Shown here piece after piece: positions 33,360-63,381 of a stretch of 64,000 bases of DNA. Under the pieces are notes generated by a model. It was given only the letters and a program-made list of their open reading frames with translations, did no database searches and was not told where the DNA came from. The stretch lies in assembly GCF_016649425.1 (NCBI RefSeq), contig NZ_JADRCR010000001.1, forward strand, positions 248,001-312,000. The letters are read 5' to 3'. Numbering within the stretch: position 1 is the stretch's first letter; every line of letters begins with the position of its first letter. This DNA is from Limnobaculum allomyrinae (GTDB lineage: Bacteria; Pseudomonadota; Gammaproteobacteria; Enterobacterales; Enterobacteriaceae). Both the position numbers and the translations under genes were made by a program.

Positions 33360-33436
33360 GCGTCCGTAGCTCAGTTGGTTAGAGCACCACCTTGACATGG
33401 TGGGGGTCGGTGGTTCGAGTCCACTCGGACGCACCA
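33360..33436 (+). tRNA. valV: tRNA-Val(GAC), copy 1
   Basis: 77 bases folding as a full cloverleaf with encoded CCA. Acceptor GCGTCCG / CGGACGC, anticodon loop TTGACAT (GAC at 33394-33396), T-loop TTCGAGT. It reads GUC and GUU codons. Start of a two-gene valV-valW operon as in E. coli. Confidence 0.97.
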
Positions 33437-33469
33437 GATATCGCTTTTTGCAGTATCTGGAATTCCAAA

Positions 33470-33546
33470 GCGCCCTTAGCTCAGTTGGTTAGAGCGCCAC
33501 CTTGACATGGTGGAGGTCGGTGATTCGAGTTCACTAGGGCGCACCA
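33470..33546 (+). tRNA. valW: tRNA-Val(GAC), copy 2
   Basis: 77 bases, encoded CCA, acceptor GCGCCCT / AGGGCGC, anticodon GAC at 33504-33506. It differs from the first copy in the acceptor stem and the T-stem (GATTCGAGTTC). A 33-base spacer holding a short hairpin separates the two; a T-run (CCATTTTTTTC) right after it is a likely terminator. Confidence 0.97.
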
Positions 33547-33879: not shown

Positions 33880-35292
33880 ATGAAAAAGACTAAAATTGTA
33901 TGTACCATCGGTCCAAAAACTGAATCAGAAGAAGTTTTGGGTAAGCTGCTAAATGCAGGTATGAATGTAATGCGTTTGAACTTTTCTCATGGTGACTATA
34001 ATGAGCACGGACAACGTATTTCTAATCTGCGAGCAGTATTGGCCAGAACGGGTCAAAAAGCAGCTATTCTGCTGGATACCAAAGGACCGGAAATTCGTAC
34101 CATGAAACTGGAAGGCGGCAATGATGCCTCTCTGGTTGCAGGTCAAACCTTCACGTTTACCACTGACCAAAGCGTTGTTGGTAATAGTGAGCGTGTTGCT
34201 GTGACCTACAGTGGCTTTGCGGAAGACCTGAAAGTGGGTAATACCGTACTGGTTGACGATGGCTTGATTGGTATGGAAGTTATCGAAGTCCGCGCTAAAG
34301 AAGTTGTGTGTAAAGTACTGAACAGCGGCGACCTGGGAGAAAACAAAGGTATCAACCTGCCAAACGTATCCATTCAATTACCTGCTCTGTCAGAAAAAGA
34401 TAAAAAAGACCTGGTATTTGGCTGTGAGCAAAACGTTGATTTTGTTGCTGCCTCTTTTATCCGTAAACGTTCAGACGTATTAGACATTCGTGAGCATTTG
34501 AAAGCACACGGCGGTGAGCACATTCAAATCATCTCCAAAATTGAAAACCAGGAAGGCCTGAATAACTTCGACGAAATCCTCGAAGCGTCAGACGGCATCA
34601 TGGTTGCTCGTGGTGATCTTGGTGTTGAGATCCCGGTTGAAGAAGTTATCTTTGCTCAGAAAATGATGATCGAGAAGTGTAATCAGGCTCGTAAAGTGGT
34701 TATCACCGCAACGCAAATGCTGGACTCCATGATCAAAAACCCTCGCCCTACCCGTGCTGAAGCCGGTGACGTTGCAAACGCCATTCTGGACGGTACTGAT
34801 GCCGTTATGCTGTCAGGTGAGAGTGCTAAGGGTAAATATCCACTGGAATCCGTTACCATCATGGCCACTATTTGCGATCGTACCGATCGTGTGATGCCAT
34901 GCCGCGTAGACAAGCTGACCTCTTCCGGTAAATTACGTATTACCGAAGCCGTGTGTCGTGGCGCAGTAGAAACTTCAGAGAAGCTGGATGCAGTACTGAT
35001 TGTTGTGGCTACTCAAGGCGGTAAATCAGCGAAAGCTATCCGTAAATACTTCCCTACCGCTCCGATTCTGGCATTAACTACCAACGAAACTACCGCTCGT
35101 CAGTTAGTTCTGACCAAAGGTGTTACCGCTCAAGTGGTTAAAGAGATCGCATCTACCGATGATTTCTACCGTATTGGTAAAGAAATGGCGTTAACCAGCG
35201 GCCTGGCTCAAAAGAATGATGTTATCGTAATGGTATCTGGTGCACTGGTTGCCAGCGGCACAACAAATACTGCTTCCGTACATATTCTTTAA
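33880..35292 (+). CDS. pykF: Pyruvate kinase I (fructose-1,6-bisphosphate-activated)
   Basis: 470 residues, as in E. coli. Arg32 in [16 protein letters not shown], the active-site ISKIEN lysine segment, the B-site GVEIPVEEV and ESAKGKYP loop are all present; the C-terminal effector domain ends TNTASVHIL. It makes pyruvate and ATP from phosphoenolpyruvate, the last step of glycolysis. The Cra-like operator lies 180 bases upstream. A strong terminator follows, then lpp as in E. coli. Confidence 0.98.
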
Positions 35293-35663: not shown

Positions 35664-35876
35664 ATGAACCGTACTAAAGTGGTACTGGGTGCTGTAATTT
35701 TAGGTGCTACTCTGTTAGCTGGTTGTGCGAAAAGCACTGACACTTCAACTAACAGCAAGCTGACTCAACTGATCAGCGATGTTGCTGCTTTACGTTCTGA
35801 TGTACAAGTTGCTAAAGATGAAGCAGCTCGTGCTAACCAACGTTTAGACAACATGACTCGTTCTTACAAGAAATAA
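35664..35876 (+). CDS. lpp: Braun lipoprotein Lpp, short form
   Basis: 70 residues from the ATG at 35664 (ribosome site GAGGGTG at 35652); a longer frame from 35568 has no such site. Signal with lipobox LLAGC, mature protein 50 residues, C-terminal Lys that attaches to peptidoglycan. E. coli mature Lpp has 58. Aligning by eye, the C-terminal DVQ...[16 protein letters not shown] part is intact, but 14 residues (two heptads) of the trimeric coiled coil are missing, partly made up by a 10-residue Ser/Thr linker after the acylated Cys. The gene tethers outer membrane to peptidoglycan. Followed by a strong terminator. Confidence 0.95.
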
Positions 35877-35892: not shown

Positions 35893-35918
35893 AAATGGCG
35901 CACTTAAGTGCGCCATTT
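35893..35918 (+). terminator. lpp terminator
   Basis: Perfect 12-base stem AAATGGCGCACT / AGTGCGCCATTT with loop TA, followed by T5. Confidence 0.92.
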
Positions 35919-56145: not shown

Positions 56146-56182
56146 GTCATAAGAGCTCTGTTCTGACTATTTTCAGGCAATA

Positions 56183-56207
56183 AAAAACCCGCTCAATGCG
56201 GGTTTTT
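56183..56207. terminator. Bidirectional terminator Arc-type | csp
   Basis: Perfect stem AAAAACCCGC / GCGGGTTTTT with loop TCAAT. Confidence 0.9.
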
Positions 56208-56232
56208 GGCAATACGGTTATTGTGTAATAAA

Positions 56233-56442
56233 TTACAGAGCAACAACTTCAGCCGCAGACGGGCCACGTGGGCTGTCTTGAATAGAAAATTCAACATGCT
56301 GGCCTTCGGCCAGAGTTTTGAAACCATCATTAACGATAGCAGAGAAATGAACGAACACATCTTTGCTGCCATCAGTTGGAGTGATGAAACCAAAACCTTT
56401 ACTTTCGTTGAACCACTTAACGTGACCAGTTTTCTTAGACAT
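56233..56442 (-). CDS. cspE: Cold-shock protein, CspC/CspE type (copy 1)
   Basis: 69 residues from the ATG at 56442 (AGGAATT upstream); the longer frame to 56577 is read-through of the leader. RNA-binding motifs KGFGFIT (RNP1) and VFVHF (RNP2) are intact. Csp proteins melt RNA secondary structure and can act as antiterminators. cspE versus cspC cannot be told apart by sequence alone. Confidence 0.92.
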
Positions 56443-56895
56443 TACAAAATTCCTATTGATGTTTAACCTGCCAAAAGGCACGAAAGGTCGGTAGTTGTGG
56501 TTACTTATGTTAAGCACTGAAGAAGAGAACCTGGAAGAAGTTAAGGATAACGAACTTGCCGGGAATACTTGATTCAAAATGACTTATCTGAAGTAGCTCT
56601 ATTTTACTGACCAAAAACATTACCGCATATCCAATAAATTTAGGCAAGGTGTTTTCAGCAACTGAATAAAAAATTAGATCAAGAGCACATATTTTTGTTT
56701 TTTAATTGCCATCGAAACGGTTAAGCAAATACTTATCAATGTTCTTATCCTAATATTAATTAGGCATCAGGTATAATGAGACATTAATTTCATTAATCAA
56801 ACTAATCCCACTAATCTGTAATGCAGAAAAACTTATTAACTGTTAGAATGAAAGACCTATTTATACTATAAATTGATTTGCACAAGAAAAATAAC
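56443..56895. promoter_or_regulatory. Leader region between the cold-shock gene and ygjP
   Basis: 453 bases without a trusted ORF. The part next to the csp ATG is the likely long 5' leader of the cold-shock mRNA; the rest is AT-rich with the ygjP promoter. ATTAATTTCATTAATCAAACTAATCCCACTAATC near 56783-56816 is a repeated TAAT-rich stretch. Confidence 0.4.
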
Positions 56896-62819: not shown

Positions 62820-62881
62820 CCTTGTCACTGAAGCTAAGAAAGTCAGAGACTTATCTTATCTTCCTTAACGTTTGCTGCTAA

Positions 62882-63091
62882 TTACAGAGCAACAACGTTT
62901 GCAGCTGCTGGACCGCGTGGGCTGTCTTGAATGGTATATTCAACTTTCTGGCCTTCAGCCAGAGTTTTAAAACCTTCACTAGCGATAGCAGAGAAGTGAA
63001 CGAATACGTCTTTACCACCATCATCTTGCTCAATAAAACCAAAACCTTTGCTTTCATTGAACCATTTAACTTTGCCAGTTTTCTTGGACAT
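62882..63091 (-). CDS. cspC: Cold-shock protein, CspC/CspE type (copy 2)
   Basis: 69 residues with both motifs intact (KGFGFIE and VFVHFSAI), very close to the copy at 56233-56442. Its location next to rlmA is that of E. coli cspC. E. coli has the small gene yobF upstream; I found no convincing counterpart here. AGGTAAG lies about eight bases before the ATG. Confidence 0.93.
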
Positions 63092-63381
63092 CTTTACTTA
63101 CCTTTAAATTAGTTAACCTGCCATACATCATAGGGTATAGGCATTATGGCCAGATTTTCAGAGTCATTACTTATGGAGGCACTAAGAAGATGTTCGTCTA
63201 ATAAGCGAAATCAAAAGATAACGGCTTTAAGAAGGAACTGCTTTACTCTAATGTCGTACATAAATAGGTCTGTAGCACAGGCCGGTTCACATTTACTCAT
63301 AATGAACCACATAACGCAAGCGATTTCTCACTCTTTTGGGTAAAACAACGTAACTGGTTACTTTTCACCCTTATAAATTGA
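63092..63381. promoter_or_regulatory. cspC leader region
   Basis: 290 bases upstream of cspC, probably a long 5' leader as in other csp genes. A plus-strand frame at 63146-63343 lacks a ribosome site and is not believed. Confidence 0.45.

What the first reader, a model, noticed from the sequence alone, without database searches (positions are those of the whole stretch)
35664..35876. Lpp with a coiled coil two heptads shorter
Mature Lpp is 50 residues versus 58 in E. coli, with a 14-residue coiled-coil deletion and a longer Ser/Thr linker. Lpp length sets the gap between outer membrane and peptidoglycan, so the change could mean a thinner periplasm or a compensating linker.
Basis: partly seen in the sequence, partly recalled or inferred. 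Interest (0 to 1): 0.5.

Follow-up and report, generated by a model that had tools for sequence, protein, structure and literature searches.

The report
Shortened Braun lipoprotein in one family
One bacterial family carries an unusually short version of the protein that ties the outer membrane to the cell wall, and some other envelope spacers in the same bacteria are shorter too, which offers a natural test of what sets the width of the bacterial envelope.

Summary
Confirmed. Window 35664-35876 (+) encodes a 70-aa Braun lipoprotein (Lpp), mature length 50 against 58 in E. coli, the only Lpp found in this genome. The short form is in all 10 Budviciaceae genomes examined (mature 49-50), so it is no assembly error. 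The net loss is 8 residues: four core layers (two heptads) of coiled coil are gone and the N-terminal tether is 10 residues instead of 4. The split '14 deleted, 6 added' is not unique. Lipobox, remaining heptads and C-terminal Lys are intact.

Beyond the finding: the envelope-distance sensor RcsF has a linker of 12-13 residues in the same 10 genomes, against 31-38 in 44 of 47 others read; the OmpA barrel-to-wall linker is 18-20 (9 of 9) against 21-29 (20 of 21). Pal is unchanged; LpoB and TolA are only at the short end. The likely sister lineage (Enterobacteriaceae bacterium B14) has short RcsF (18) and OmpA (20) linkers but full Lpp, so these probably shortened first. Another genome, G153, has short RcsF (17) with full Lpp, so coupling is suggestive, not strict. 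Best reading: a compacted outer-membrane-to-wall gap with matched linkers. Rival: a taut tether reaches as far as in E. coli. Width was not measured.

The parts
35664..35876 (+). lpp, Braun (murein) lipoprotein, 70 aa precursor
35664..35723 (+). signal peptide, 20 residues, followed by lipobox Cys21
   Evidence: sequence
35727..35756 (+). N-terminal tether [10 protein letters not shown] (mature residues 2-11); stands where the 58-residue form has 18 residues after Cys. AlphaFold gives low confidence (mean pLDDT 67 over residues 1-10) but draws helix from residue 4
35757..35867 (+). coiled coil, 11 hydrophobic a/d layers from L13 to Y48 of the mature protein
35871..35873 (+). C-terminal Lys codon, the expected peptidoglycan attachment residue
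   Evidence: sequence; attachment is established knowledge for E. coli Lpp
35893..35918 (+). inverted repeat followed by a T run after lpp, probable terminator; read by eye, not listed by the scan
   Evidence: sequence
33880..35292 (+). pykF, same neighbour as in E. coli
36280..37203 (-). L,D-transpeptidase (YkuD plus Ldt_C), closest of E. coli LdtA, B, C, E to LdtC (60%), with HGT...SSGCIR motif

Best explanation
The gene is the only Braun lipoprotein found in this bacterium (most likely a Limnobaculum) and works like E. coli Lpp: a triacylated N-terminus in the outer membrane, a trimeric coiled coil, and a C-terminal Lys joined to peptidoglycan by an L,D-transpeptidase. In the Budviciaceae ancestor the N-terminal two heptads of rod were lost and a short Ser/Thr tether was left. 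The resting gap between outer membrane and wall is therefore probably about 1-2 nm smaller. The change was tolerated because RcsF, which switches on the Rcs stress response when it reaches IgaA too easily, already had a shortened linker and became shorter still, and the OmpA linker was shorter as well. Shown: sequences, lengths, presence in all 10 family genomes examined, co-occurrence, and the short RcsF and OmpA linkers of the B14 lineage. Inferred: trimer and cross-link, the smaller gap, the permissive order, and that linker lengths were selected to match.
For: Short Lpp in 10 of 10 genomes assigned to Budviciaceae by name, genus or tree (five genera). In a 99-genome family sample, 72 have an Lpp match; only the four Budviciaceae rows have the shortened coil: 61 rows span 234 nt, three 237 nt, and the four other odd rows, read in full, have the ordinary N-terminal coil, two of them in broken genes. 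RcsF linker 12-13 in all 10, 31-38 in 44 of 47 others. OmpA linker 18-20 in 9 of 9, 21-29 in 20 of 21 others. Pal mature 146-153 against 143-156, so linkers did not all shrink. B14 is sister to the family (UFBoot 80 with three proteins; 95 with six) and has RcsF 18, OmpA 20, Lpp 58. Literature: RcsF+7 restores signalling in Lpp+14 cells (PMC5736177, passages); a thinner periplasm or a longer RcsF linker activates Rcs (PMC12528386, passages); shortening Lpp by 21 in Dickeya gives mucoid, non-motile cells (PMC12274547, section). Estimated relaxed reach 8.8 to 7.4 nm.
Against: G153 has an RcsF linker of 17 with Lpp 58 and its place in the trees is unresolved, and B14 itself has full Lpp, so short RcsF does not need short Lpp. 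G069 has a 17-residue OmpA linker with an Lpp match of ordinary length (234 nt) and no RcsF match. Each change is one event on one lineage, so no statistic of correlation is possible. Pal unchanged; LpoB (35-39 against 37-60) and TolA (281-328 against 303-435) overlap the others. Maximal reach of the tethered rod equals E. coli's. MAG G103 has an ordinary-type FlgH (76%), so at least one short-Lpp genome may build an ordinary L-P ring set, unless the bin is mixed. In E. coli, lengthened Lpp did not simply widen the periplasm (PMC8824477, abstract and sections).
Confidence: 0.5

Rival explanations
1. Compensation: the longer tether makes up for the shorter rod. The wall sits at the same distance as in E. 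coli when the tether is taut, and only stiffness changes (rod on a string). The RcsF and OmpA changes are unrelated.
For: Computed maximal reach 9.39 nm against 9.31 nm in E. coli; the residues at the next two core positions are D6 and T9, not hydrophobic; Pal unchanged; longer Lpp in E. coli is accommodated without simple widening (PMC8824477).
Against: A protein tether is rarely fully extended; estimated relaxed reach is 1.4 nm shorter. Genomes with a 9-residue tether stop 0.3 nm short even when stretched. AlphaFold draws helix from residue 4, although with low confidence. It leaves the shorter RcsF and OmpA linkers unexplained.
Confidence: 0.3
2. Transport: the Ser/Thr tether was selected for lipoprotein export. 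E. coli Lpp has no linker and its N-terminal part is unfolded while bound to LolCDE; a built-in linker would remove that need. RcsF shortened for reasons of its own, such as no longer threading through porins.
For: In the LolCDE complex the Lpp chain is extended and unresolved beyond Asn18 (PMC12846838, passages), about the stretch replaced here (first 19 residues become 11). The same passages name threading through outer-membrane proteins as a possible use of the RcsF linker. Short RcsF occurs with full Lpp in B14 and G153.
Against: The 58-residue Lpps read keep hydrophobic core residues in the first unit, so export does not require a tether; the same paper links linkers to efficient transport, yet RcsF here lost most of its linker. 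LolCDE sequences were not examined.
Confidence: 0.15
3. Neutral change or artefact: a chance deletion in a repetitive coiled coil that drifted to fixation without consequence, or an assembly or start-site error.
For: Lpp length differs in other gammaproteobacteria (mature 55 in a Plesiomonas record, 57 Anaerobiospirillum and relatives, 61-62 Aeromonas, 70 Thaumasiovibrio), so length is not absolutely fixed.
Against: Found in 10 genomes; conserved within the family (of 61 codons compared, 0 amino-acid changes in Pragia, 1 each in G099, Leminorella and B. aquatica, 3 in the MAG, 6 in B. diplopodorum); 61 of 72 rows of the family sample span exactly 234 nt and 140 of 150 printed rows of the larger one; engineered length changes have phenotypes.
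Confidence: 0.05

Closest known systems
E. coli Lpp (Braun or murein lipoprotein, PF04728; PDB 1eq7)
   Same: Signal peptide, lipobox, heptad a/d core from the KVDQL unit onward, RANQRLDN block, C-terminal Lys, pykF upstream and an L,D-transpeptidase downstream.
   Different: Four of 15 core layers missing; 10-residue Ser/Thr tether instead of 4; mature 50 instead of 58. The downstream enzyme is LdtC-like, in E. coli it is LdtE.
Engineered Lpp length variants (Lpp+7, +14, +21 in E. coli; Lpp shortened or lengthened by 21 in Dickeya)
   Same: In-register change of whole heptads of the coiled coil.
   Different: Natural, present throughout a family, combined with a longer tether, and accompanied by shorter RcsF and OmpA linkers.
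RcsF+7 / Lpp+14 matched pair (Asmar 2017, PMC5736177)
   Same: RcsF linker length and Lpp length change in the same direction.
   Different: There both are lengthened by design; here both are shorter, and RcsF probably shortened first.
Second Lpp-like lipoprotein of Leminorella G242 (L288)
   Same: Small lipoprotein with an Lpp-like coil (35% identity). A likeness to E. coli YqhH is recalled, not tested.
   Different: No C-terminal Lys (ends in PLL), so not expected to be cross-linked; no such match in the window's genome.

Membership tests
Braun lipoprotein (Lpp, PF04728) | Family profile match above the curated cut-off | tested here: met
   63.4 bits against 29.1
Braun lipoprotein (Lpp, PF04728) | Signal peptide with lipobox Cys; no Asp at +2 (outer-membrane sorting) | tested here: met
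   LLAGC-A, read from the sequence; the +2 rule is established knowledge
Braun lipoprotein (Lpp, PF04728) | Heptad coiled coil with hydrophobic a/d positions | tested here: met
   11 consecutive hydrophobic layers; predicted helix, block pLDDT 95-98 over residues 11-40
Braun lipoprotein (Lpp, PF04728) | C-terminal Lys for attachment to peptidoglycan | tested here: met
   Lys is the last residue in all 13 aligned sequences
Braun lipoprotein (Lpp, PF04728) | L,D-transpeptidase of the Lpp-attaching type present in the genome | tested here: met
   LdtC-like enzyme next door, 60% identity; activity not tested
Braun lipoprotein (Lpp, PF04728) | Mature length of 58 (typical of the group, not defining) | tested here: not met
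   50 residues
Braun lipoprotein (Lpp, PF04728) | Trimer, covalent link to the wall, bound and free forms | not testable with these tools
   needs sacculus digestion and mass spectrometry
RcsF sensor lipoprotein | Lipobox, linker and conserved C-terminal domain | tested here: met
   Budviciaceae matches of 50-56% identity starting at E. coli residue 40-49 and ending at 131-132, each with a lipobox
RcsF sensor lipoprotein | Long linker (32 residues in E. coli) able to reach IgaA | tested here: not met
   12-13 residues counted from Cys, 33 in E. coli by the same count; reach to IgaA not testable, IgaA was not examined

The most novel reading that the evidence does not exclude
Budviciaceae and their sister lineage underwent a stepwise compaction of the envelope: the sensor linker (RcsF) and the non-covalent wall anchor (OmpA) shortened first, which made it safe to shorten the covalent tether Lpp afterwards. 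The family would then live with a constitutively thinner outer-membrane-to-wall gap without triggering Rcs: an evolutionary mirror image of the Lpp+14 / RcsF+7 experiment.
Probability: 0.35. Interest if true: 0.75.

Novelty: new variant of a known kind. Interest (0 to 1): 0.58.

Why it matters
Lpp length is nearly constant (78-residue precursor in most species, PMC8824477), and ideas about how it sets envelope width rest on engineered strains. A whole family with a naturally shortened Lpp and shortened RcsF, plus a likely sister lineage with only RcsF and OmpA shortened, lets the ruler model be tested by comparison rather than by engineering alone, and makes the order of the steps a testable question.

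Tried and rejected
Unequal crossing-over between the two 14-residue repeat units: the units are only 19-29 of 42 nt identical in the eight 78-aa genes compared, and the retained unit matches unit 2 of B14 (30/42) better than unit 1 (18/42); at protein level the two fit equally (8/14 each), so this is disfavoured, not excluded.

Origin of the Ser/Thr tether by local frameshift of old coil DNA: alignments are no better than shuffled sequence (p 0.10-0.38, five comparisons).

Shrinkage of all lipoprotein linkers: rejected by Pal. A swap of the neighbouring L,D-transpeptidase in Budviciaceae: rejected, since all 8 outgroup neighbours examined are also closest to LdtC; 5 of the 13 outgroup regions showed no such neighbour. 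Plasmid search with the lpp region: 11 records at 60-80% identity, five of them listed, nothing short noted.

Rows dropped: OmpA G026 (broken frame); LpoB G101 (script chose a wrong upstream Cys); TolA G024 and G093 (no anchor); RcsF G026, G330 and the second B. aquatica copy (no lipobox found). G039 (degenerate) and G054 (broken reading frame) were kept in the 47 but are not sound genes. G101/G148, G102/G184 and G103/G138 are taken as one genome each from equal contig lengths; the count of 10 allows for this. RcsF linkers were read in 57 genomes (10 plus 47, E. coli K-12 included), not in all 264 with a match; those added through one search were chosen mostly because they scored low, which favours finding odd linkers. 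In one search, 150 rows were printed of the 295 genomes with a match (10 short, 140 of 234 nt); the rest were not seen, apart from those read in other calls. OmpA of G153, and IgaA anywhere, were not examined.

Full report
The observation. The window at 35664-35876 (+) encodes a 70-residue lipoprotein whose mature part, from the lipobox Cys, has 50 residues. It matches the Lpp family of Pfam well above its cut-off, and its closest solved structure by sequence is E. coli Lpp. It lies between pykF and an L,D-transpeptidase gene as in E. coli; the transpeptidase is closest to LdtC, which also holds for the same neighbour in the 8 outgroups compared, whereas E. coli has LdtE there. The genome (4.58 Mb, 30 contigs, rated complete) gave no other Lpp; the only further row is a 25% match at E=0.73.

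Anatomy. From the KLTQL unit to the C-terminal Lys the protein aligns without gap to the second 14-residue unit and the rest of E. coli Lpp. The first 19 residues of the 58-residue form are represented by 11 ([11 protein letters not shown]). E. coli and B14 have 15 hydrophobic a/d layers, the window 11; the positions that would continue the core are T9 and D6. The statement '14 out, 6 in' is one parse; a net 24-nt deletion plus substitutions fits as well, and the tether DNA cannot be traced. AlphaFold on 13 sequences draws a helix from residue 4 to 49 but with a mean pLDDT of only 67 over residues 1-10, so the state of the tether is open.

Distribution. In a 99-genome sample of the GTDB family, 72 have an Lpp match: 61 span 234 nt, four belong to Budviciaceae (three of 210 nt; the 198-nt row is B. 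diplopodorum, whose protein is 70 aa), three are 237 nt, and four are 132, 177, 225 and 231 nt. Those last four were read: all keep the ordinary N-terminal coil, and two are broken (G028, G095). In a 392-genome sample 295 have a match; of the 150 rows printed, 10 are short (four genomes of the window's genus, Pragia, two Budvicia, two Leminorella and one MAG) and 140 span 234 nt. Of 73 Lpp loci read in full, some of them from the same genome, 11 are 49-50 residues mature (all Budviciaceae), 51 are 58, and 11 are 55-70 (other gammaproteobacteria); a further 27 new ones gave two of 50 (Leminorella) and 25 of 58. NCBI places Budvicia, Leminorella, Pragia and Limnobaculum in Budviciaceae, so the window's genus is probably Limnobaculum, by elimination.

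Conservation. Against the window gene, 61 codons outside the tether show 0 amino-acid changes in Pragia, 1 each in G099, Leminorella and B. aquatica, 3 in the MAG and 6 in B. diplopodorum, where the C-terminus is rearranged but still ends in Lys. Synonymous changes are also few (1-7), so this argues for constraint without a formal test.

Other rulers. E. coli K-12 proteins were used to find RcsF, Pal, LpoB, FlgH and OmpA in 30 genomes, and RcsF in 30 more. RcsF: from the acylated Cys to the residue equivalent to Val49, all 10 distinct Budviciaceae genomes have 12-13 residues. Of 47 others (with E. coli), 44 have 31-38; the exceptions are G150 (18), G153 (17) and the degenerate gene of G039 (23). 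OmpA: barrel end to wall-binding domain is 18-20 residues in 9 of 9 Budviciaceae, 21-29 in 20 of 21 others, 17 in G069, and 20 in B14, counted from the printed sequence. Pal is unchanged (146-153 in 9, 143-156 in 21 others, mature). LpoB is 35-39 (8 usable of 9) against 37-60 in 21; by Cys-to-Trp count B14 has 49, the window's genome 41 and E. coli 60. TolA, from VMVDP to the end, is 281-328 in 8 Budviciaceae and 303-435 in 10 others, 369 in E. coli and 317 in B14. So the shortening is specific to some components.

Order of events. It has RcsF 18, OmpA 20 and Lpp 58. If this placing holds, RcsF and OmpA linkers shortened before Lpp. G153, with RcsF 17 and Lpp 58, is represented by only two of the proteins and is placed firmly in neither tree. 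RcsF length is thus not a strict follower of Lpp length, and the permissive order is a hypothesis.

Mechanism and literature. Papers were seen as outlines, passages or single sections. Asmar 2017 (PMC5736177, passages): lengthened Lpp breaks Rcs signalling and a 7-residue longer RcsF linker restores it fully in Lpp+14 and partly in Lpp+21; the linker is given as 32 residues. EMBO J 2025 (PMC12528386, passages): a periplasm thinner by about 3 nm goes with Rcs activation, and a longer RcsF linker switches Rcs on. Nicolai 2025 (PMC12274547, passages and one section): Lpp shortened by 21 in Dickeya gives very mucoid, non-motile, shorter cells with wild-type SDS resistance. Mandela 2022 (PMC8824477, outline with abstract and three sections): Lpp is 78 residues in most species, and longer Lpp is accommodated rather than simply widening the gap. 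Put together, a shorter Lpp with an ordinary RcsF should tend to switch Rcs on, and a short RcsF would prevent that. This is inference. A worm-like-chain estimate (0.36 nm per residue, persistence length 0.4 nm, 0.1485 nm rise per helical residue) gives rod plus relaxed tether 8.8 nm in E. coli and 7.4 nm here, and at full stretch 9.31 and 9.39 nm, so the tether could fully compensate under tension but not at rest.

Flagella. FlgH was not found at 1e-20 in the four genomes of the window's genus or in B. diplopodorum; Leminorella, B. aquatica and Pragia have only a divergent FlgH (34-37%), and the MAG has an ordinary one (76%). A published survey reports secondary (flag-2) loci in Budvicia, Pragia and Leminorella, the first two described as motile without flag-1 (PMC6993521, passages). 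Whether loss of ordinary flagella relates to short Lpp is open; the MAG argues against necessity.

Novelty. Four searches of the paper library aimed at this (Budviciaceae with Lpp; RcsF, linker and Lpp; the genera with lipoprotein or RcsF; RcsF, Lpp and natural variation) listed no paper whose title or abstract opening describes short Lpp or short RcsF in this family; most listed papers were not opened. The length histogram in PMC8824477 may contain these sequences, but figures and supplements were not seen. The protein is a new variant of a known kind. The surprise is the company it keeps.

Noticed in passing
window 62830-63286 (-) and 56179-56611 (-): Two cspA-type thermoregulator RNA elements (Rfam RF01766, 139 and 124 bits), about 6 kb apart.
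   Followed up: no
window 33360-33546 (+): Two tandem tRNA-Val genes with the same GAC anticodon just upstream of pykF.
   Followed up: no
L097 (Budvicia aquatica, G102): A second RcsF-like gene, 52% identical to E. coli RcsF, in which the lipobox Cys appears replaced by Phe and no metQ or trmO was found beside it; possibly a non-lipidated paralogue.
   Followed up: partly
L288:1495-1725 (Leminorella G242): A second small Lpp-like lipoprotein without C-terminal Lys; the other Budviciaceae genomes show one Lpp match each at E<=1e-4.
   Followed up: partly
L250 (G153): RcsF linker of 17 residues in a genome with ordinary Lpp that is not firmly placed near Budviciaceae: perhaps a separate shortening.
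   Followed up: partly
L035 and L292 (Budvicia diplopodorum): C-terminus SRGKYTK instead of TRSYKK, with the final Lys kept, and no L,D-transpeptidase like the window's within about 4 kb of lpp.
   Followed up: no
genomes G000, G003, G099, G100, G046: No FlgH at E<=1e-20, so probably no ordinary flagellum, in the window's genus and in B. diplopodorum.
   Followed up: partly
L413 (G028) and L416 (G095): lpp reading frame broken in the assembly: frame changes in G028 (genome rated 49% complete) and a stop before the C-terminus in G095 (1.2 Mb genome).
   Followed up: partly
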